A DNA stretch of 64,000 nt from Pseudomonas sp. GM78 (GTDB lineage Bacteria; Pseudomonadota; Gammaproteobacteria; Pseudomonadales; Pseudomonadaceae), in assembly GCF_000282475.1 (NCBI RefSeq), contig NZ_AKJF01000056.1, positions 62,001 through 126,000 of the forward strand, written 5' to 3'. Shown here one piece after another: positions 21,496 through 29,670 of this stretch (the first letter of the stretch is position 1; each line of letters starts with the position of its first letter). Below the pieces are notes generated by a model that had not been told where the DNA came from, searched no databases, and saw nothing but the letters and a program-made list of their open reading frames with translations. The position numbers and the translations under genes are program-made.

Positions 21496-22674
21496 ATGAA
21501 CGAAAAAAAGCTCCTGCTGTTGGCCGTTGCCCTGCTGATGTTTCCGCAGATCGCCCAAACCCTCTACAGCCCGGCGTTGGCGGATATCGGCCAGGCCTTT
21601 TCTGTCGGCCCACAACAAGCGGCGCAAACCTTGTCGGTGTTTTTCCTGGCGTTTGCGTTCGGTGTAGTGGTGTGGGGACGGCTGTGTGACCGCATTGGGC
21701 GTCGACCATCGATGCTCGCCGGCCTGGTGTTGTACGCCGTTGCGTCGACGATGGGGCTCAGTGTCAGCACCTTCGATGCGCTGTTGGTCGCGCAAGGCCT
21801 GGCCGCGTTCGGTGCGGCGGTGGGTTCGGTTGTTACGCAAACCGTGCTGCGCGATCGCTTCCAGGGTGCGCAACTGGCCCAGGTTTTTTCGGTGATGGGC
21901 ATCGCGTTGGCGGCCAGCCCGGCAATTGGCTTGTTTACCGGGGCGAGCCTGGTGCAGGCCTTTGGTTATCGGGGTGTACTGGCCTGTCTTTTAGCGCTGT
22001 CGCTGGGGCTGTGGCTCTGGTGCCTGCGAGATCTGCCGGAAACCCGACCACAGGTCGTGAAAACCCCGGCACTGCTCGAAACGCTGCGCGCAATGCTGCG
22101 TGACCGTGACATTTGGCGTTCGACGCTGTTGGTCGCGGCATTCAACATTGCCTTGTTCAGCTACTACAGCCTCGGCCCCTTCGTGTTCCAGCGCCTGGAC
22201 TTGGGCGCGCAATGGTTCGGCTATAGCGGCGTTGTCCTGGCCCTGGGTTCCGGTCTTGGCGCCTGGCTCAACAAACGGCTGTTGCAGCGTGGACTGAACG
22301 GCCATCAACTGATCCAGGTGGCCGCCGCGATGATGGTGCTGGGCGCGAGCGGCGTGTTGCTGCTGGAGCACAGCGTTCTGTTTGTCCTGCCGATGCTGTT
22401 GGTGGTACTGGCGTTCGGCATGGCGATCCCCAATATCCTCGGCGCGGCCCTGATCCACTATGGTGATCGACTGGGCACGGCGGGGGCGTTGTTTGGATTG
22501 CTGTATTACCTGTTGATCGGTGGCGGGCTGATGCTTGCAGCCTGGGGGCAGGCCTTGGGGCAGACACTGTTGCTGTGTGCTGTATTGGCGCTGATGTTGT
22601 CCGTGATCAAGCAGCAGGGTGCGCGCGCGACTAGCCGCAAGGGTGGGGGATCGGTCGGAAAGGATGTTGCCTGA
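21496..22674 (+). CDS. MFS drug-resistance transporter, Bcr/CflA type (12 TMS)
   Basis: A 392-residue, 12-segment exporter of the DHA1 group. The loop 2-3 motif A reads GVVVWGRLCDRIGRRPSML, followed by motif C features in the fifth segment (ASPAIGLFTGASLVQAFGYRG). It is divergent from an AraC regulator gene and followed by a good terminator. E. coli NimT/YeaN and Bcr-like proteins with AraC neighbours are the nearest functional analogues I can name; the substrate remains open. The ribosome site (GAGAG at 21481) is distant, so the exact start is slightly uncertain. Confidence 0.85.
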   Translation: MNEKKLLLLAVALLMFPQIAQTLYSPALADIGQAFSVGPQQAAQTLSVFFLAFAFGVVVWGRLCDRIGRRPSMLAGLVLYAVASTMGLSVSTFDALLVAQGLAAFGAAVGSVVTQTVLRDRFQGAQLAQVFSVMGIALAASPAIGLFTGASLVQAFGYRGVLACLLALSLGLWLWCLRDLPETRPQVVKTPALLETLRAMLRDRDIWRSTLLVAAFNIALFSYYSLGPFVFQRLDLGAQWFGYSGVVLALGSGLGAWLNKRLLQRGLNGHQLIQVAAAMMVLGASGVLLLEHSVLFVLPMLLVVLAFGMAIPNILGAALIHYGDRLGTAGALFGLLYYLLIGGGLMLAAWGQALGQTLLLCAVLALMLSVIKQQGARATSRKGGGSVGKDVA

Positions 22675-22702
22675 CACAGCGCTTTTTCGTGCTTGCTTAT
22701 TA

Positions 22703-22725
22703 AAGGGCGCCCGAAAGGCGCCCTT
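22703..22725 (+). terminator. Rho-independent terminator after the MFS gene
   Basis: AAGGGCGCC (22703-22711) pairs perfectly with GGCGCCCTT (22717-22725) around a 5-base loop and is followed by the T-rich CGTTGGTTTT, 29 bases after the MFS stop. Confidence 0.85.
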
Positions 22726-22751
22726 CGTTGGTTTTGGCTGCACCGGTGTTC

Positions 22752-23006
22752 CTAAGTCGATCGCTGCATCTGCAATCGTCGCCCAACGACATCCAACAAA
22801 TCGCAGCCGTCGCGCAGCGAGGTCACCAGTACCCGCGCTAAATCGCTGTAAACGCCTTCGCTGAGCGCAAAGCTTTCCAGCAGTTGAGTCGCGGTGCGGA
22901 TGCGGTAGGCCGCAATTTCGTGCAGCACGTCCAGTGGTGCTTCGGTATCGATCAGCAACGATGGGACAGCACAGTCGATGCCGGTGACAGGCATGTATCG
23001 ATCCAT
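22752..23006 (-). CDS. Small Pseudomonas protein, DUF3077-like
   Basis: An 84-residue soluble protein read from the ATG at 23006, which has a strong AAAGGAGG site. It contains a predicted amphipathic helix pair (PLDVLHEIAAYRIRTATQLL, then a second helix ending LLDVVGRRLQ). The arrangement resembles the small DUF3077 proteins common in Pseudomonas, which I recognise only by pattern and length. It lies 41 bases downstream of the DUF6124 gene on the same strand and is probably co-transcribed with it. No function is established for either family. Confidence 0.6.
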   Translation of the reverse strand: MDRYMPVTGIDCAVPSLLIDTEAPLDVLHEIAAYRIRTATQLLESFALSEGVYSDLARVLVTSLRDGCDLLDVVGRRLQMQRST

Positions 23007-23047
23007 GACAAAAAACCTCCTTTAGGTAATAGAGCGTAACCACTCAG

Positions 23048-23425
23048 CTAGTTGTTGGACGGTGTCTCAGGAAAACCGCCCGGTGGGTCAAGGTTGTCCA
23101 GTGCTCGATTGACCAGCAGCTCGCCCAGCACGGCCAATTGCTGAATGGCCAGCATGACATTGCGGCGTGAGCCTTCCAGTTCACACGCGAGGTCGGTGGC
23201 CATGACATTCAGGGACGCGAGCGTTTCACAGGCGTGACAGAGCAAGGACTCGGTGTCGATGTTCGGCATGATGGTGAAGACATGGCTGACAGGGTCGGGT
23301 CGATTTGGATTGCGCAGGCGCGCGCTGACAAGGGGCTCGGTGATATCGGAGAGTTTGGAGATATCGATAGGCTCGAAGGTCGACCGGTCGGGCGATTGCG
23401 GGGAATTGGGGGCGGTCTTTTTCAT
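23048..23425 (-). CDS. DUF6124-family small protein
   Basis: A 125-residue protein read from the ATG at 23425, with AAGGAG upstream. The N-terminal 50 residues are polar and Pro-rich. The C-terminal half carries the family pattern VFTIMPNIDTESLLCHACET, then a helical region with LEGSRRNVMLAIQQLAVLGELLVNRALDNL. These proteins are abundant and often in several copies in Pseudomonas genomes; no activity has been assigned. It heads a two-gene unit with the smaller protein downstream and is divergent from the AT-rich island that begins around 23500. Confidence 0.8.
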   Translation of the reverse strand: MKKTAPNSPQSPDRSTFEPIDISKLSDITEPLVSARLRNPNRPDPVSHVFTIMPNIDTESLLCHACETLASLNVMATDLACELEGSRRNVMLAIQQLAVLGELLVNRALDNLDPPGGFPETPSNN

Positions 23426-23826
23426 GTCGGAGCTCCTTGCAGAGTTGAAATGCCATACCCATGCCGTCAATCAGGATTGATAAGCGGCACTGCATGAGTT
23501 GGCGGGCCGCTAAAGTTATTACCAGAAAATACCATTTAATTAATCAAAAAAATGAACATCTATGTAATTAAATGATTCATGTTTAGTTGCGCTGCTAATT
23601 GTTTTCGTTTTTCTGTAGGTTTATTCGCCAGAAGATTTCCGGTTTTGTAAGAAATATCCTCAATGTAAGTAGGGTAGGGCTGTAGGAATTGACGCTGAAT
23701 GTGGTGCCGTGAAACATTGTTTGACGGCTGTTAGGTGTGGTTGCAGTATTGTTTTTTTTGCTCGGAGGGCAGGGTGCAGGAAACCGGGGCTGATCAAAAA
23801 AACATCAGGGTAGATTAGATCTTTTG
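23426..23826. other. AT-rich intergenic region at the left edge of the XRE-VUT-QueC island
   Basis: About 400 bases with no convincing gene. From about 23510 the base composition changes abruptly from GC-rich to AT-rich (runs such as TTTAATTAATC and GTTTTTTTTGC), which continues to about 26070. It presumably carries the promoters of the DUF6124 gene and the XRE gene. I saw no tRNA fragment or paired direct repeats marking an integration site. Confidence 0.6.
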
Positions 23827-24450
23827 ATGGATAATTTAAGTGGTAGATATTTAATGTATAAAAAAGAGAAGACAGAAAAACTGAAGAGCAATATTAAATA
23901 TCTAATAAAGAGTCGCGGAGAAACTCGGCTGTCGTTGTGCAATTCAAGTGGTTTGACCAGAACAACAATCTATAACATTCTTGAAGGAAAAGTCGTCAAC
24001 GTTCAGCAATCCACTATTCGTAAGATTTCTGACTTTTTCGGGGTGTCTTACAAGGAAATAGAGACGGTTGATTTTGAAGAGAAGGAGATTATAGAAAGTA
24101 GTGTTTCTTTGCAGGGGAACATGAATCCAGCTGCGGTACCTATCATCAAAGAAAGCTTGCTTTTTCAGAGCCTTGACAAGCGAATCGGCGAACTGGCTGC
24201 AACTCATCCTCTTACTTATTATTTTGGTGCCGCTTGCAATCTCATCGCTGTGCTGCTGGAGAATGAAATTGTTGGCATGAACGAGCCTGGAGATCTATTG
24301 ATAGTGAAAAAAGGATCATCGAGTGGTGAAAAAGAAAAACTCATCTATGACAAAGTAACGAAAAAACTGCTTGTGACGTGTGAGTCTGTTCTTGATCTGG
24401 ATGCTGTTAGTGTTGTGGGGGAAATAATAGAGGAAAGATTTAATGGGTAG
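23827..24450 (+). CDS. XRE-type helix-turn-helix regulator of the queC-linked island
   Basis: A 207-residue DNA-binding protein. The Cro/CI-type helix-turn-helix spans about residues 17-75 (LSLCNSSGLTRTTIYNILEG, then STIRKISDFFGVSYKEIE). The C-terminal part (about 140-207) has GDLLIVKKGSSSGEKEKL and ends VSVVGEIIEERF, faintly like the end of S24/LexA-fold repressors, but no Ser-Lys dyad is recognisable. The start is uncertain: ATG 23827 is given, ATG 23854 is possible. Its coding region is AT-rich, unlike its neighbours, suggesting transfer. The 3' end overlaps the next gene by 8 bases, so the regulator and the transporter form one operon. Confidence 0.75.
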   Translation: MDNLSGRYLMYKKEKTEKLKSNIKYLIKSRGETRLSLCNSSGLTRTTIYNILEGKVVNVQQSTIRKISDFFGVSYKEIETVDFEEKEIIESSVSLQGNMNPAAVPIIKESLLFQSLDKRIGELAATHPLTYYFGAACNLIAVLLENEIVGMNEPGDLLIVKKGSSSGEKEKLIYDKVTKKLLVTCESVLDLDAVSVVGEIIEERFNG

Positions 24451-25315
24451 AAGTCAGGAAAACAGTAGCTACCGGCTGCTTGGGTTTGAAAAGAGCAATA
24501 GTCTTGCTTTGGTTATGGTTGTCTCCACAGGAAGAATTATCAAGATCAAACTTGCTGAGTTGATGAAAAGTGAGGTGATGGATAACTTTAATAAGGTTGA
24601 AATAAAAGACGTATACAGAAAGTTTTACTCTGGCGGCTCGGCCTTGACGGCTTATGAATTCGCTGATCGCCATGAAAGGTCGTGGATGACCTATGTCGCT
24701 CTAAATCTAATGCTGTTCGCTCTTTATATTTTTACGAATGTTGCAGCAGCTAAATTTGTATATTTAGAGTATTTCGATATTGTTGTTACTCCTGGCGTTT
24801 TCCTCTATCCATTGACCTTTTTAATAGTTGATCTTTTGAATGAGTCTTATGGGCTTAGGCTTGCAAGGAGGGCGATATTTTTTGCTTTCGCAAGCAATGC
24901 CTTTATTCTGGTGTTACTCAGTGTCACTGGTTTTCTTCCTGGGTTGCCTACTTGGGAGCTTGATGGATCATATAATAAGGTTATTGGTCATGTCTCGTCT
25001 GCATTAGTAGCCTCATCGGTATCGTTTCTTTTTTCTGAGTACGTAAACTCATATTTACTGTGTAAAATCAAGGAGCTTACGAGCTCAAGGTTTCTTTTTT
25101 TAAGGGTTTTCTTTAGTACCTTTTTTGCAGTAATAATAGATAGTTTTATTTTTTGCTTTATTGCATTTTATGGTTCCATGGAAAATGACGAAATCCTGAA
25201 TATAGTATATGTTCAGATAGCCATCAAAATGTGCTTTGCCGTGTTCAACGTGTTGCCCGCTTATGGTGCGAGGTCGCTGTTCAAGAAATATGTGGCTGGA
25301 GCTCAGGCGGCATAA
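24443..25315 (+). CDS. VUT-family (YhhQ-like) queuosine-precursor transporter with N-terminal extension
   Basis: A 290-residue protein. Residues about 1-72 form a soluble extension not found in E. coli YhhQ (about 221 residues); from about 73 it is a six-segment membrane protein with family patterns ALYIFTNVAAAKFVYL, FLYPLTFLIVDLLNESYG and FRVFF-like helices. YhhQ imports the queuosine precursors preQ0 and preQ1. AGAGGAAAG precedes the ATG, which lies inside the end of the XRE gene (8-base overlap). The neighbouring convergent gene encodes QueC, which makes preQ0, supporting a deazapurine role. The region is AT-rich. The extension's function is unknown; a shorter internal start is possible. 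Confidence 0.78.
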   Translation: MGRSQENSSYRLLGFEKSNSLALVMVVSTGRIIKIKLAELMKSEVMDNFNKVEIKDVYRKFYSGGSALTAYEFADRHERSWMTYVALNLMLFALYIFTNVAAAKFVYLEYFDIVVTPGVFLYPLTFLIVDLLNESYGLRLARRAIFFAFASNAFILVLLSVTGFLPGLPTWELDGSYNKVIGHVSSALVASSVSFLFSEYVNSYLLCKIKELTSSRFLFLRVFFSTFFAVIIDSFIFCFIAFYGSMENDEILNIVYVQIAIKMCFAVFNVLPAYGARSLFKKYVAGAQAA

Positions 25316-25320
25316 GTTGT

Positions 25321-25359
25321 GGGGGAGTATAAATTAATAATCTGGAATTTATACCGCCC
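25321..25359. terminator. Bidirectional hairpin between the convergent VUT and queC genes
   Basis: GTATAAATT (25327-25335) pairs perfectly with AATTTATAC (25346-25354). Outer GGGGG and CGCCC tracts extend the stem with a bulge. It sits a few bases after the VUT stop and before the queC stop, consistent with a shared transcription end. Confidence 0.55.
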
Positions 25360-25372
25360 GATAACGTGCTAG

Positions 25373-26071
25373 CTATTTCAGGCTTATTTTGCTCTTCAGG
25401 GTTTTCATGGTTTTCTCCTTGTCTTCCAGAAAATCATTCAGCCCTTTCGCACGAAGATTGCAGGCGTCGCAATTGCCACAGCCGCTGCCTTTTATCCCGT
25501 TATAACAAGTCAAGGTATGGTCGCGGATCAAGTCCAGGCTATTATGGTGGTCAGCCAATGCCCACGTTTCCGCTTTGTTTAACCACATTAACGGAGTTTC
25601 AAGGTGTAGTTTGTAATTCATTCCCAGCGCGATGGCGTTGTTCAGCACCTCGACGAATTCATGCCGGCAATCAGGATAGCCAGAGTAATCGGTTTCACAA
25701 ACACCGGTGATGATGGTGTCCGCTTGCACTTGATAGGCGTAAATAGACGCCAAGGTTAAAAACAGAATATTTCTACCGGGTACGAAGGTGCTCGGTAGAC
25801 TGTGTCCTGCGTTGCTTGTGCTTGGTACGGGAATGTTGTCGCGCGTCAAGCTGCTAATGGCCAGCTCATTAAGCAATGAAGTATCTAATACCTTATGCAC
25901 TTTTATGCCAAGCTTTTTGGAAAGTTGTTGCGCGACTTCAATTTCCGCGCGATGGCGTTGTCCATAGTCGAAGGTAATACAGTGAATTTCATCAAACAGC
26001 GGTAGCGCATGGATCAAGCAGGTTGTTGAGTCTTGTCCGCCACTGAAAACGATAACTGCCTTTTTAGTCAT
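25373..26071 (-). CDS. queC: 7-cyano-7-deazaguanine synthase, enterobacterial type
   Basis: A 232-residue PP-loop ATPase converting 7-carboxy-7-deazaguanine, ammonia and ATP to preQ0, an intermediate of queuosine biosynthesis. The PP-loop SGGQDSTTC is at residues 10-18; [25 protein letters not shown] and [15 protein letters not shown] follow; the zinc site is the C-x7-C-x2-C-x2-C cluster in [16 protein letters not shown] (about 190-205). Length and motifs follow E. coli QueC closely. The housekeeping Pseudomonas QueC, as I recall it, has SGGLDSAT instead, so this looks like an additional, horizontally acquired copy. The start has AAGGAAG upstream. queD and queE are absent; a VUT transporter gene converges on it. 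Confidence 0.92.
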
Positions 26072-26384
26072 GCTTTTTTCTTCCTTGGAGGGAATCCAAC
26101 GTGTGTTGGGCGCATTGACCGTACCGGGAGGATTGGATTCTGGCTGTGGGACGTTTCCGAGATGGCTGTCGGCGCTTTCCGAATCTGTCAGTTGTTGGCA
26201 GATATTGGGGAATTCCGAAGGGTAGCGGTGCGACGGGAATGGTCGTCGGGTGCGAGACTCACTTGAAAAGACACAGCCCTGTAGGCGCTGGCGCAGGCTG
26301 CGATCTTTTGACCTAGATTGTTCAGATCAAAAGATCGCAGCCTCGTTTCTCTCGACAGCTCCTACAGGTCCTACGGGGTAGGGA
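26072..26384. other. Intergenic region between queC and the thiolase gene
   Basis: 313 bases. The queC promoter should be in the left part (26072-26200); I looked for a preQ1 riboswitch on the minus strand and did not recognise one. The right part holds a degenerate REP inverted repeat (26280-26366). No credible gene. Confidence 0.6.
26280..26366. repeat. Diverged REP-type inverted repeat, GTAGGAGCTGCCGCAGG family
   Basis: Left arm TGTAGGCGCTGGCGCAGGC and right arm ending CGACAGCTCCTACA; the inner halves around GATCTTTTGA and GATCAAAAGATC match the family, but the outer part of the right arm has diverged. Confidence 0.75.
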
Positions 26385-27566
26385 TCAGGCGCGCTCGAAA
26401 ATCGCCGCAATCCCTTGGCCACCACCAATGCACATGGTCACCAGCGCGTAACGTCCATTGACGCGGTGCAGTTCGTGGATGGCCTTGGTGGCGATGATGG
26501 CGCCGGTAGCGCCCACCGGGTGACCCAGGGCGATGCCCGAGCCGTTCGGGTTGACCTTGGCCGGGTCCAGATCCAGTTCCTGGCTGACCGCGCAGGCTTG
26601 TGCGGCGAAAGCGATGTTGGCTTCGATCACGTCCATGTCGGCGACGGTCAGGCCGGCGCGCTTGAGCGCCAGGCGGGTGGCCGGGATTGGGCCCAGGCCC
26701 ATCAGTTCCGGTTCGAGGCCGGCGTGGGCGTAGCTGACCAGGCGGGCGAGTGGGCGCAGGTTGTTGACCTGTACCGCGGCGCCGGTGGCCATGACCAGTG
26801 CGGCGGCACCGTCGTTGAGGCCCGAGGCGTTGCCGGCGGTGACCGAGCCATCCTTCTTGAACGCCGGCTTCATCGCAGCCAACTGCTCCAGGGACGTGGC
26901 GCGTGGATGCTCGTCGACGTTGAACAGCTTGGTGCCCTTGCGATCCTGGATTTCCACGGTCGCGATCTGATCAACGAAGTAGCCGTTGGCAATCGCGTGG
27001 GCTGCGCGTTTCTGGTCTTCCAGGGCCAGGGCATCCTGCATTTCACGGGTGATGCCGTTGCGCGCGGCGACGTTTTCCGCGGTGATGCCCATGTGGATGT
27101 TCTGGAACGGGTCATGCAGGATGCCGAGCATGTAGTCGACTGCCTGGACATTGCCCATGCGCGCGCCCCAACGGGCGGATGGCAGCAGGTACGGGCCGCG
27201 GCTCATGGATTCGGCACCGGCGCCGATGGCGATGTCGGCATCGCCCAGCAGCAGGGTCTGCGCTGCGCTGATGATCGCTTGCAGGCCCGAACCGCACAGG
27301 CGGTTGACGTTGTAGGCCGGGGTTTCCTTGGGGATGCCGGCATTCATCGCGGCAACCCGGGAGATGTAGGCGTCGCGGGTTTCGGTCGGGATCACGTGGC
27401 CCATCACCAGGTGACCGACCTGCGCCGGCTCTACACCGGCACGTTGCAGGGCGGCTTTCACGGCGGTGGTCGCAAGCTCCGACGGTGGCACATCCTTGAG
27501 TGAACCACCGAAGGTGCCAATGGCGGTACGGGCGGCGCTGACGACGTAAATTTCCGGGGTGTTCAT
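26385..27566 (-). CDS. Acetyl-CoA acetyltransferase / beta-ketothiolase
   Basis: A 393-residue thiolase II-type enzyme catalysing reversible cleavage or condensation of 3-ketoacyl-CoA with CoA. Conserved residues are visible: nucleophilic Cys in [11 protein letters not shown] (about residue 90), His in IALGHPVGATGA (about 348) and the second Cys in VTMCIGGGQG (about 378). The start overlaps the stop of the upstream crotonase gene by 4 bases (ATGA), so the pair is translationally coupled. It resembles BktB and PhaA-type thiolases; it is not the paaJ of the phenylacetate cluster, which lies at 42291. Substrate chain length cannot be judged from sequence alone. Confidence 0.9.
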   Translation of the reverse strand: MNTPEIYVVSAARTAIGTFGGSLKDVPPSELATTAVKAALQRAGVEPAQVGHLVMGHVIPTETRDAYISRVAAMNAGIPKETPAYNVNRLCGSGLQAIISAAQTLLLGDADIAIGAGAESMSRGPYLLPSARWGARMGNVQAVDYMLGILHDPFQNIHMGITAENVAARNGITREMQDALALEDQKRAAHAIANGYFVDQIATVEIQDRKGTKLFNVDEHPRATSLEQLAAMKPAFKKDGSVTAGNASGLNDGAAALVMATGAAVQVNNLRPLARLVSYAHAGLEPELMGLGPIPATRLALKRAGLTVADMDVIEANIAFAAQACAVSQELDLDPAKVNPNGSGIALGHPVGATGAIIATKAIHELHRVNGRYALVTMCIGGGQGIAAIFERA

Positions 27567-28345
27567 GGTTGTGTTCCTTTCGCTGGATTCTTATCTGTAC
27601 TGCGATTGAGCAGGGCGTTCAAGGCCGTTTTCGCCTCGACGGTGTTGAGGCGCTGGATGAACAGCAGGTTTTCTTCGCGCAGGGTGGCTTGCAGTTCGGC
27701 CATGCCGGCCTGCGTCATCAGTTGCCGGGATTGGCGCAGGGCCTGCTGGGGCAGCGCCAGAAAGCGTTGGGCAATTTTGTTTGCCGCAGCCAGGCACTGT
27801 TCGCCGTCATCAAAGGCTTCGTTGGCCAGGCCCCAGGCCACCGCCTCGCTGCCATCGAGGCTGTCGCCCAACAGCAGCAGGCGCGCCGCGCGAGCCTGGC
27901 CCAGCCGGCGAGGCAACAGCAGGCTGGCACCGAACTCGGGGCACAGGCCCAGGTTCACGAACGGCGTACGCAGCTTGGCATTACGGGTGACCAGCACCTG
28001 GTCGCAATGCAGCAGCAGGGTGGTACCGATGCCGATGGCGGCCCCGCACACCGCCGCGATCAACGGTTTTTGCAGGTGGGTCACGGCGCGCATCAGGCGG
28101 AATGCCGGGCTGTCCAGGTGCGTCGGCGGCTCTTGCAGGAAGTCCACCAGGTCGTTGCCACTGGTAAAGCAGTTCGGGCCACCGGTGACGATGACCACCC
28201 GGACTTCGTCGTTTTCGTCGGCCGCAAACAGCAGGTCGGCCAAGCGCGTGTACATGCCGTTGGTCAGTGCGTTGAGCTTGTCGGGGCGATCGATGGTCAG
28301 TGTCAGCACGCCATCGCGCAGTTCTTGTTTGATCAGGTCGGTCAT
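27563..28345 (-). CDS. Enoyl-CoA hydratase/isomerase (crotonase family)
   Basis: A 260-residue crotonase-fold enzyme, read from ATG 28345 (MTDLIKQELRDGVLTL); a longer reading upstream adds an unrelated tail. The oxyanion-hole regions are IDRPDKLNALTNGMY (about 20-34) and AAVCGAAIGIGTTLLLHCD (about 100-118). At the position of the catalytic Glu pair of classical hydratases the sequence reads LGLCPEFGASLLLPRRLG, which suits an isomerase as much as a hydratase. It is co-transcribed with the downstream thiolase gene (4-base overlap). Together they form a small beta-oxidation module separate from paaFGHJ. Confidence 0.87.
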   Translation of the reverse strand: MTDLIKQELRDGVLTLTIDRPDKLNALTNGMYTRLADLLFAADENDEVRVVIVTGGPNCFTSGNDLVDFLQEPPTHLDSPAFRLMRAVTHLQKPLIAAVCGAAIGIGTTLLLHCDQVLVTRNAKLRTPFVNLGLCPEFGASLLLPRRLGQARAARLLLLGDSLDGSEAVAWGLANEAFDDGEQCLAAANKIAQRFLALPQQALRQSRQLMTQAGMAELQATLREENLLFIQRLNTVEAKTALNALLNRSTDKNPAKGTQP

Positions 28346-28563
28346 GGATGGCTCTGGCAGAGTCGGTTCAACGGACACTTTAAGCGTCAGGCAATCCCCG
28401 CAGCTATGACAAAACGGGTCAACCGACCTGATGCTTTTTGCCATATCGCGCCTTGAAAACGACCCACACACCCATTCGGGGTATGGTGCGGTCCGGCGAA
28501 TCCACCAATAGTAGGGTCATCCGCTCATCCAGAGCCGAACTCGCTTGATAAGGTGCATTTGCT

Positions 28564-29670
28564 ATGGGCAAGACACTGCTTAAGGTGATTTCCAGTCTGT
28601 TTGTTGTACCGCTGACCCTGAGTGCCCACGCCGGTGAGGTGAACGACAGCAATACGCTGCGGCTGTACAACTGGGCGGACTACATCGGTGAGAAAACCCT
28701 GGCCGATTTCGAAAAGGCCACCGGGATCAAGGTGATCTACGACACCTTCGACGCCTATGAAACGGTGCAGGCCAAGTTGCTCACCGGCCACTCCGGTTAC
28801 GACCTGATCGTGCTGAATGCCTCCCTCGCACCGCCGCTGATCCAGGCCAAGGTGTTCCAGCCACTGGACAAGAAACTGCTGCCGGGCTGGAGCAACCTGG
28901 ACCCGAAAGTCTTGCACGACCTGCAAGGGTTCGATCCGGGCCCGACCTACTCGGCGCCTTATACCTGGGGCAGCAACGGCATCACCTACAACGTCGACAA
29001 GATCAAGGAGCGCATGCCGGATGCGCCGATCGGCTCGCTAGCGATGATTTTCGATCCGAAGATTGTCTCGCGCTTCGCCGATTGTGGTGTGACCCTGGTC
29101 GATGCGCCCACGGAAGTGATCCCCCTGGCGCTCAAGTACCTGGGCCGCGATCCGCGTAGCGCCAAGCCGGAGGACCTGAAGGCGGCGCAGGAACTGCTGC
29201 TGTCGGTGCGGCCGTACATCCGCAAATTCGACTCGGTCAATTACCTGACCAGCCTGCCCAATGGCGATGTGTGCATGGCCATGACCTGGTCCGGCGACTA
29301 CGCGACGGCCATGGCCCGCGCCGAAGAAGCCAAGTTGAACATCAACCTGTCCTATTTCATTCCCAAGGAAGGCTCGCTGATCTGGTTCGACAACATGTAC
29401 ATCCCGGCCGACGCGCCCCATGTTGCCAACGCGCACAAATTCCTTGAATACCTGATGCAGCCGCAGGTGATGGCGGACGTCACCGATTACATCCATTACG
29501 CCAACAGCAACGCGGCGGCCACGCCTTTGTTGAATGCCGATGTGCGCAACAACCCGGCGATCTACCCCGATGACGTCACCCGCGAGCGCCTGTTCCCGCA
29601 GAAGACCCAGGACGCCAAGGACATGCGCGCCATGACCCGGGTCTGGAGCACGGTGAAAAGCGGCATCTGA
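28564..29670 (+). CDS. PotF/SpuD-like periplasmic polyamine-binding protein
   Basis: A 368-residue solute-binding protein of an ABC importer. A signal peptide (about 1-23, ending AHA-GE) precedes the polyamine-type start LRLYNWADYIGEKTLADFEK. Ligand-box residues of the PotF/PotD family are recognisable in YDLIVLNAS, YTWGSNGITYNVDKI and MAMTWSGDYATAM. The length matches PotF (370). No permease or ATPase gene is adjacent, so it must work with a transporter encoded elsewhere or have another role. An aminotransferase gene follows 39 bases downstream, suggesting uptake and transamination of putrescine or a related amine. AAGGTG precedes the ATG. Confidence 0.87.
   Translation: MGKTLLKVISSLFVVPLTLSAHAGEVNDSNTLRLYNWADYIGEKTLADFEKATGIKVIYDTFDAYETVQAKLLTGHSGYDLIVLNASLAPPLIQAKVFQPLDKKLLPGWSNLDPKVLHDLQGFDPGPTYSAPYTWGSNGITYNVDKIKERMPDAPIGSLAMIFDPKIVSRFADCGVTLVDAPTEVIPLALKYLGRDPRSAKPEDLKAAQELLLSVRPYIRKFDSVNYLTSLPNGDVCMAMTWSGDYATAMARAEEAKLNINLSYFIPKEGSLIWFDNMYIPADAPHVANAHKFLEYLMQPQVMADVTDYIHYANSNAAATPLLNADVRNNPAIYPDDVTRERLFPQKTQDAKDMRAMTRVWSTVKSGI

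What the first reader, a model, noticed from the sequence alone, without database searches (positions are those of the whole stretch)
23510..26071. AT-rich island with XRE regulator, extended VUT transporter and a foreign-type QueC
Base composition shifts sharply for about 2.5 kb. Inside are an XRE-type regulator overlapping by 8 bases a VUT/YhhQ-like transporter that has an unexplained soluble extension of about 72 residues, and a convergent QueC of the enterobacterial SGGQDSTTC type rather than the SGGLDSAT type I recall for Pseudomonas. QueD and QueE are absent. QueC makes preQ0 and YhhQ moves preQ0/preQ1, so this is probably a self-regulated deazapurine module acquired by transfer. Possible roles are salvage, an additional preQ0 supply, or a defence or modification function.
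Basis: partly seen in the sequence, partly recalled or inferred. Interest (0 to 1): 0.72.

Follow-up and report, generated by a model that had tools for sequence, protein, structure and literature searches.

The report
Mobile queuosine-precursor import and supply cassette
A small, foreign, AT-rich gene cassette pairs a DNA-binding regulator with a transporter for the building blocks of a tRNA modification and with an interchangeable enzyme of the same pathway; relatives sit on plasmids, often right beside the genes for plasmid transfer, which makes it an untested candidate switch linking tRNA-precursor supply to mobile DNA.

Summary
At 23510-26071 of a Pseudomonas umsongensis-like genome lies an AT-rich island: an XRE regulator, a VUT/COG1738 transporter overlapping it by 8 bases, and a convergent Enterobacterales-type QueC with all canonical motifs. 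The genome has another queC beside queE, so this is a second copy. The trio is intact in 50 of 61 Pseudomonas loci examined, in at least four chromosomal contexts, absent from a same-species genome, and under purifying selection. The transporter's N-terminal extension, probably cytosolic, marks the XRE-linked subfamily. The near-constant core is XRE+VUT; the enzyme is QueC (convergent), QueF (co-directional) or missing, in Serratia, Vibrio, Arsenophonus, Cedecea and relatives. Both enzymes feed preQ1/queuosine, and the genome has one TGT-family match, which argues against DNA modification. Best reading: a mobile, self-regulated queuosine-precursor import/supply cassette with transport-coupled sensing (sensing and self-regulation inferred). 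In 6 of 8 plasmid or large-replicon contexts opened, the cassette lies at the start of a transfer, type IV secretion or pilus operon. A preQ0/preQ1-responsive transfer switch is the boldest reading not excluded, but I found no shared operator. New variant of a known kind.

The parts
22676..26279 (.). Block present here and absent from a same-species genome (G264), from just after the MFS stop codon to a REP-like element; holds two small genes plus the trio
   Evidence: window 21496-22675 and 26280-29670 match G264 with 14 bases between them there; a stricter alignment ends at 22638, leaving 36 bases
22752..23006 (-). Small 84-aa gene (U84), co-absent with the trio in G264; found near the trio in 20 of 60 fetched Pseudomonas loci; no Pfam or NCBIfam match
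23048..23470 (-). DUF6124 gene, co-absent with the trio in G264; found near the trio in 24 of 60 fetched Pseudomonas loci
23540..23578 (+). Conserved 40-bp dyad-like element upstream of XRE (TTAATCA...AACAT...AAATGATTC); candidate operator or cassette end; one place in the whole genome at up to 3 mismatches
23854..24450 (+). XRE/CI-like regulator, 198 aa, HTH plus a C-terminal domain likened to S24/CI domains
24443..25315 (+). VUT/COG1738 (TIGR00697) queuosine-precursor transporter, 290 aa, six hydrophobic segments after the extension
24443..24694 (+). N-terminal extension of the VUT (about residues 1-84), shared by XRE-linked VUTs, predicted cytosolic
25316..25365. Inverted repeat (20-nt arms, 80% complementary) between the convergent VUT and queC genes; possibly a terminator (the terminator scan did not list it)
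25373..26071 (-). Second QueC, Enterobacterales type, 232 aa, canonical motifs
26140..26166 (-). Conserved element upstream of queC (CTCGGAAACGTCCCACAG in the window; core TCCCACA in 26 of 40 dereplicated Pseudomonas upstream regions); candidate promoter or operator, unlike the XRE element

Best explanation
It is a horizontally moving queuosine-precursor cassette. VUT imports preQ0/preQ1 (inferred from family). The accessory QueC makes extra preQ0 from the host's 7-carboxy-7-deazaguanine (inferred from its complete catalytic signature). The host's own QueF and Tgt then carry the product into tRNA (a Tgt-family gene is present; QueF was not searched in this genome). The XRE protein, a CI-like regulator, controls its own operon, perhaps through the conserved 40-bp element upstream (inferred). 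Because XRE and VUT overlap, are nearly always found together, and XRE-linked VUTs carry an extra cytosolic domain, I infer that VUT reports precursor availability to XRE, as a transporter does for a repressor it sequesters (analogy recalled). Shown here: conservation of the trio, foreign-type QueC, swapping of QueC for QueF, the motifs, purifying selection. Inferred: substrate, direction of transport, autoregulation, the XRE-VUT contact.
For: Trio in the same arrangement intact in 50 of 61 Pseudomonas loci (46 full, plus 4 whose XRE alignment ran into a stop outside the gene; one search shows no stop inside those four) in at least four contexts. XRE family in 66 of 298 Pseudomonas genomes, 1 of 369 (own) class-wide and 6 of 375 in the order of Xenorhabdus khoisanae, the seed genome included. 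XRE and VUT searches of 72,556 plasmid records return the same 22 records. QueF over the cut-off in 8 of 8 partners tested. All six motif patterns checked in 22 of 22 cassette QueCs chosen for the tree. Median dN/dS 0.05-0.10. One TGT-family match in the genome. Empty site in a same-species genome. Charge pattern predicts a cytosolic N terminus for VUT.
Against: The host already has queE, queC and tgt, so the need for a second queC is unexplained. In four Pseudomonas loci (L070-L073) QueC is absent while XRE and VUT are intact, and in Vibrio p2-ED002 no Q enzyme is listed near the pair, so precursor synthesis is not the constant function. One locus (L186) has the XRE with no VUT found; the Cedecea VUT is in two pieces and not annotated. 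No word shared by XRE and queC upstream regions beyond chance (window p 0.08). The 40-bp element is missing in seven cyo-context loci (L099-L105) and in the four plasmid regions. The VUT model is poor (pLDDT 62.8) and no solved relative was found by sequence, so the XRE-VUT contact is a guess.
Confidence: 0.6

Rival explanations
1. The cassette is a regulator of neighbouring mobile-element functions: XRE, tuned by preQ0/preQ1 through VUT and the linked enzyme, switches conjugative transfer or surface-structure operons. On plasmids it is a transfer switch; on Pseudomonas chromosomes it is a domesticated or stranded copy.
For: In 6 of 8 plasmid or large-replicon contexts opened (6 of 9 if the two large Vibrio replicons, whose neighbours differ, are counted apart) it lies at the 5' side of a transfer or pilus operon: between traM and traA, divergent from traY-traA, divergent from trb, divergent from a VirB/TrbC operon, queC divergent from NusG-like, SLT, VirB3 and VirB4-like genes, and near pil genes with an HTH gene between. 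The systems are unlike each other. In two F-type backbones it lies in the traM-to-traY/A interval, where other F-like plasmid groups carry other regulators (PMC5102898, passages).
Against: No shared word beyond chance between XRE upstream and transfer- or pil-operon upstream regions in the three plasmids where they are separate (p 0.12, 0.64, 0.41). Cedecea and the large Vibrio replicons do not show the link. A weak TraJ-like frame remains in JSRIV006 (17 bits against a cut-off of 444). No formal permutation was run, and a slot near transfer genes may simply tolerate cargo.
Confidence: 0.2
2. Ordinary mobile metabolic cargo: redundant queuosine genes carried along with no special sensing; the regulator only controls itself or silences AT-rich foreign genes.
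For: The host has its own pathway genes. Incomplete copies occur: 11 of 61 loci are not intact trios, 3 of them cut by contig ends.
Against: Low dN/dS in all three genes, an extension shared by XRE-linked VUTs, near-constant XRE-VUT pairing, and the ordered swap of QueC and QueF.
Confidence: 0.15
3. A preQ0 supply for DNA modification, or a QueC-type defence protein that modifies a partner protein (Qat, type IV CBASS).
For: QueC-family proteins are used this way elsewhere (PMC13329287, parts 1-2 of 5 read).
Against: A single TGT-family match; canonical QueC motifs; the PADLOC QueC model matches with 61 bits, best stretch residues 97-208; no defence partner among the neighbours named; QueF, which consumes preQ0, replaces QueC in sister cassettes.
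Confidence: 0.05

Closest known systems
COG1738/QPTR (YhhQ) queuosine-precursor transporters
   Same: TIGR00697 over cut-off, Vut_1 domain, six hydrophobic segments; E. coli YhhQ is needed for preQ0 transport (PMC5372724, abstract and passages)
   Different: Extra conserved N-terminal domain; paired with its own XRE regulator, where other family members are under preQ1 riboswitches or, for yhhQ, reported in the PurR regulon (passage); no riboswitch found here; 36 bits against the YhhQ model's cut-off of 252
Canonical QueC (cluster 1 of PF06508, PMC13329287)
   Same: The published motifs and length; 67.8% identity to an E. coli QueC
   Different: Not linked to queD/queE; a second copy in a genome that has its own; tied to a regulator-transporter pair
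CI-like phage repressors (lambda, 186)
   Same: HTH plus C-terminal domain; best Foldseek matches 7jvt, 3bdn, 2fjr (E 5.9e-6 for the best)
   Different: TM-score only about 0.3; no invariant Ser or Lys in the C-terminal domain across 16 relatives, so self-cleavage is unlikely; no prophage genes named beside it
preQ0 gene clusters on mobile elements (queCDE on Mesorhizobium ICESyms)
   Same: Queuosine-pathway genes as mobile cargo (PMC8627217, passage)
   Different: There a queCDE set; here one interchangeable enzyme with a regulator-paired transporter

Membership tests
COG1738/TIGR00697 transporter | Match to the curated family model over its cut-off | tested here: met
   106.4 bits against 50.95
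COG1738/TIGR00697 transporter | Transports preQ0/preQ1 | not testable with these tools
   needs an uptake assay
E. coli-type YhhQ (NF008406) | Score over the equivalog cut-off | tested here: not met
   36.4 bits against 252
Canonical QueC | Catalytic and zinc motifs | tested here: met
   six of six checked patterns, motifs taken from PMC13329287
Canonical QueC | Curated model over cut-off | tested here: met
   NF008317 418 against 378; TIGR00364 269 against 150
Canonical QueC | Restores queuosine in a queC mutant | not testable with these tools
   bench assay
Qat / type IV CBASS | Partner genes (qatA, qatB, qatD or CD-NTase) next to it | tested here: not met
   named flanking proteins are MFS, DUF6124, thiolase, enoyl-CoA hydratase and others without such domains; two small or unnamed frames had no match
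Deazaguanine DNA modification (dpd) | A DpdA (TGT-like) enzyme in the genome | tested here: not met
   one PF01702 match in the whole genome, at 547 bits; a DpdA too divergent for this model would be missed
preQ1-riboswitch-controlled Q salvage operon | preQ1 riboswitch upstream | tested here: not met
   no Rfam match at E up to 1 in 22500-27000
Cleavable S24/LexA-type repressor | Conserved Ser-Lys dyad | tested here: not met
   no invariant Ser or Lys in the C-terminal domain across 16 sequences
Conjugation regulator | Binds and controls a transfer-operon promoter | tested here: inconclusive
   position at transfer or pilus operon starts in 6 of 8 contexts, no shared operator

The most novel reading that the evidence does not exclude
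A queuosine-precursor-responsive switch for mobile DNA: a VUT transporter with a signalling domain reports external or internal preQ0/preQ1 to a partner XRE regulator, with QueC or QueF setting the precursor level, and the regulator gates conjugation or pilus operons beside which the cassette repeatedly sits. That would make a tRNA-modification precursor a signal for plasmid transfer.
Probability: 0.2. Interest if true: 0.9.

Novelty: new variant of a known kind. Interest (0 to 1): 0.6.

Why it matters
Known control of COG1738 transporters is by preQ1 riboswitches and, for E. coli yhhQ, reportedly by PurR (PMC5372724, passage). A dedicated regulator nearly always paired with the transporter would be a new mode of deazapurine sensing, testable with two genes. 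The swap of QueC for QueF points to preQ1 and queuosine, not preQ0, as the common end. The repeated position at the start of unlike transfer operons raises the question of why plasmids place queuosine-precursor genes there.

Tried and rejected
Riboswitch upstream of XRE or queC: none in Rfam, and the 281-nt stretch 23580-23860 folds no better than shuffles (z 0.24). A TTTCTGTARGAAA operator suggested by eye: 3 matches at up to 2 mismatches in the window, and 5 of 100 shuffles have at least 3; dropped. The 40-bp element in non-Pseudomonas cassettes (9 regions, 3 versions of the motif): full motif p 0.005 in L040 and 0.01 in L036; 22-base core p 0.005 in L040 and 0.01 in L030; 10-base core p 0.01 in L040, 0.02 in L039, 0.05 in L030; the rest not. 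With 27 tests this is only suggestive, strongest for L040. A shared word between XRE and queC or transfer-operon upstream regions: p 0.08-0.96 over 7 comparisons. The idea that the cassette serves translation of NAU-rich transfer genes: NAU fraction of transfer genes is 0.40-0.42 in three plasmids and 0.70 in Arsenophonus, below the cassette's own in each; rejected as a main reason. Phage origin: no VUT relative in 50,697 phage records; PHROGs does hold a VUT-like family (phrog_4899, E 1.4e-20) and a QueC-like one (phrog_1550), so related domains exist in phages. DNA modification and defence: see rivals. The VUT model was too poor to search. Promoter and terminator scans of 23400-26400 gave no more sites than shuffles. 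Literature searches for the cassette listed no paper whose title or abstract start describes an XRE-VUT-QueC/QueF unit; for most papers only the listing was seen. In PMC11130926 the word XRE does not occur in the main text (passages); in PMC13329287 'transporter', 'PF02592' and 'HTH' do not occur as word starts, and I read parts 1 and 2 of 5. In PMC5372724, PMC8627217 and PMC5102898 I saw passages only.

Limits: of 66 Pseudomonas genomes with the XRE, 61 loci (window plus 60) were examined with wide flanks; five (G036, G055, G019, G297, G062) were not. Of 22 plasmid records, 12 neighbourhoods were opened. The tree used 17 of the Pseudomonas cassette QueCs, chosen by hand. dN/dS medians rest on 35, 31 and 77 usable pairs out of up to 150 sampled per gene (dS between 0 and 2.5). 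Another queC was shown only in the window's genome and in Xenorhabdus G666; QueF in the window's genome was not searched. Flanks of L186-L193 were read by eye as open frames, apart from the QueF scans and one integrase.
Full report
OBSERVATION. The composition drop is real: GC 0.36-0.49 within about 23500-26250 against 0.55-0.68 outside. It holds an XRE regulator (start matching relatives ATG 23854, end 24450), a VUT transporter (24443-25315) overlapping it by 8 bases, and a convergent QueC (25373-26071, minus). The genome has a second QueC on another contig, directly after a QueE (TIGR04349 over cut-off), of the SGGLDSAT type. The two QueCs are 38% identical.

ORIGIN. In a tree of 85 QueC proteins, the 17 Pseudomonas cassette QueCs chosen form one clade (100/98) inside an Enterobacterales-type clade (100/99) that excludes the genome's own QueC. 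Identity is 67.8% to an E. coli QueC. The sister group inside that clade is unresolved (88/86, drawn open). A same-species genome (G264, one contig, 100% complete) has no match to the XRE at E 1e-20, and there the sequences left of 22675 and right of 26280 lie 14 bases apart (36 by the stricter alignment). The absent block also contains DUF6124 and an 84-aa gene, and ends at a REP-like repeat. Insertion here or deletion there cannot be told apart from this alone.

CONSERVATION IN PSEUDOMONAS. The XRE is in 66 of 298 genomes of the genus but only in the own genome among 369 drawn across the class. Of 61 loci examined (window plus 60 fetched; five of the 66 not fetched), 50 have all three genes intact; this counts four whose XRE alignment ran into a stop outside the gene (one search lists no stop inside them). 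XRE and VUT are full without QueC in five (one at a contig end); six more have VUT, QueC or all genes partial, two of these cut by contig ends. The contexts differ: beside a cyoE-like UbiA-family gene (21 loci), with an AroP-like permease on the left (9, seven of them with an RF-1-domain, arfB-like gene on the right), beside beta-ketoacyl-synthase genes (13), and MFS-thiolase as here; families, 'cyoE', 'arfB' and 'aryl polyene' being recalled names. Median dN/dS is 0.098 (XRE), 0.053 (VUT) and 0.066 (QueC) over 35, 31 and 77 usable pairs, with dS of 1.2-1.5. The cassette is therefore maintained and found as a unit at different places.

OUTSIDE PSEUDOMONAS. The VUT finds 22 plasmid records and no phage. 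The XRE of a Serratia cassette finds the same 22 records: Serratia 12, Vibrio 5, Arsenophonus 4, Cedecea 1. In the order of Xenorhabdus khoisanae, 6 of 375 genomes have the XRE (the seed genome included), two of them with two copies. Two architectures emerge: XRE>VUT> <QueC (Pseudomonas, Serratia F-type plasmids, pE36_3, S. symbiotica, Cedecea, L187) and XRE>VUT>QueF> (Serratia JSRIV006, Arsenophonus, large Vibrio replicons, L188-L192); QueF is over its curated cut-off in 8 of 8 tested. In L040 and L030 no Q enzyme was seen beside the pair. One genome (G1035) carries one of each type (L187, L190). Exceptions: L186 has XRE without a detectable VUT, the Cedecea VUT is in two pieces and unannotated, and one Arsenophonus VUT is split by an insertion sequence. 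In five of five loci compared, the cassette is more AT-rich than nearby genes, for example 0.42 against 0.63 here, 0.36 against 0.59 and 0.31 against 0.53 on plasmids.

PROTEINS. QueC has the published canonical motifs, as do all 22 cassette QueCs checked (motifs from PMC13329287), so a preQ0 synthase is far more likely than a protein-modifying QatC/Cap9. VUT has six hydrophobic segments after the extension (one further weak peak lies inside it, residues 20-38) with a charge pattern that puts its N terminus in the cytosol. A profile of 16 cassette VUTs matches VUTs in 69 of 369 class genomes; of the matches listed, only the window's own starts in the first residues, four others start at 25-57 and the rest at 68 or later. 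The extension is thus a mark of the XRE-linked subfamily; it is predicted as three strands followed by helices (mean pLDDT 62-80 over residues 11-70; whole model poor at 62.8). The XRE model (pLDDT 77.7, pTM 0.52) matches lambda and 186 repressors best (7jvt, E 5.9e-6, but TM-score 0.33), so CI-like with an S24-like C-terminal domain is likely rather than certain; no Ser or Lys there is invariant in 16 relatives. No solved structure matches VUT by sequence; the XRE profile finds only an HTH protein at E 0.05.

REGULATORY DNA. A 40-bp element lies 224-414 bases upstream of XRE: 67 of 88 Pseudomonas upstream regions (several species represented twice) match it at 30 or more of 40 positions, in all four contexts, but seven cyo-context loci (L099-L105) lack it, and 0 of 4 plasmid regions reach 22. 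In the window's genome it occurs once, at 23540-23578, at up to 3 mismatches, so XRE either controls only its own cassette through it or the element is a cassette feature of another kind. In plasmid cassettes it is at best suggested, most in L040. QueC's upstream element is different, and no shared operator was found.

MECHANISM. QueC and QueF lie on successive steps (CDG to preQ0, preQ0 to preQ1). Since either can be the partner, and QueF consumes preQ0, the shared end is most simply preQ1 and queuosine in tRNA. The single TGT-family match and the lack of defence partners agree. The near-constant pair is XRE+VUT, which suggests that the transporter is also part of the sensing, comparable in logic to repressors sequestered by their transporter (recalled analogy). 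This contact is inferred, not shown.

LINK TO TRANSFER OPERONS. Twelve of 22 plasmid records were opened, representing eight contexts (nine if the two large Vibrio replicons are counted apart). Six have the cassette at the 5' side of a transfer or pilus operon: Serratia F-type (traM, a small HTH gene, cassette, traA; one search likewise before traA), JSRIV006 (XRE divergent from traY-traA), Vibrio p2-ED002 (divergent from trb with two small genes first), Arsenophonus (divergent from a VirB/TrbC operon with small genes first; the same arrangement is broken by insertion sequences), pE36_3 (queC divergent from NusG-like, SLT, VirB3 and VirB4-like genes) and S. symbiotica (queC, another HTH gene, then hypothetical and pil genes). 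Cedecea and the large Vibrio replicons do not. With 39 to 129 listed genes per representative record, landing at such a place six times looks unlikely by chance, but I ran no formal permutation, the plasmids may share history, and transfer regions may tolerate cargo. In F-like plasmids TraJ is the key tra activator, and other groups carry another DNA-binding protein in its locus (PMC5102898, passages); JSRIV006 still has a weak TraJ-like frame (E 0.003, far under cut-off). The transfer-switch reading stays at 0.2.

VERDICT. It is a new variant of a known kind: a mobile queuosine-precursor cassette with a dedicated regulator paired to the transporter and an interchangeable enzyme. My literature searches listed no description of it.

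Noticed in passing
L064, L067, L109, L111, L114, L117, L120 and L037: In 13 of 61 Pseudomonas loci and on the Cedecea neteri plasmid the cassette lies near beta-ketoacyl-synthase (and FabG-like) genes resembling an aryl polyene cluster (likeness recalled), in unrelated bacteria.
   Followed up: partly
L118:653-1297 and L118:4997-5695: A Pseudomonas locus holds a second cassette-type QueC (76% to the window's) about 2.8 kb upstream of XRE.
   Followed up: no
loci L063, L065, L068, L070, L076 and others (24 of 61): A serine-hydroxymethyltransferase-family gene (PF00464, one tested) lies left of the trio in two quite different chromosomal contexts, so it may travel with it.
   Followed up: partly
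window 26280-26370: REP-like repeat, with many relatives in G264, forms the right edge of the presence/absence block.
   Followed up: partly
L172:3279-7490: On an Arsenophonus plasmid the VUT is split by an IS91-family insertion while queF is still annotated.
   Followed up: no
L187 and L190 (G1035): One genome of the Xenorhabdus order carries both a QueC-type and a QueF-type cassette.
   Followed up: no
L168:5134-6696: Shewanella baltica plasmid pSbal01 carries queE and queC with neighbours such as uvrB and rrtA, looking like a piece of chromosome; not linked to XRE-VUT.
   Followed up: no
L186:5657-9034: An XRE of this family without a detectable VUT, near a phage-integrase-family gene (PF00589).
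   Followed up: no
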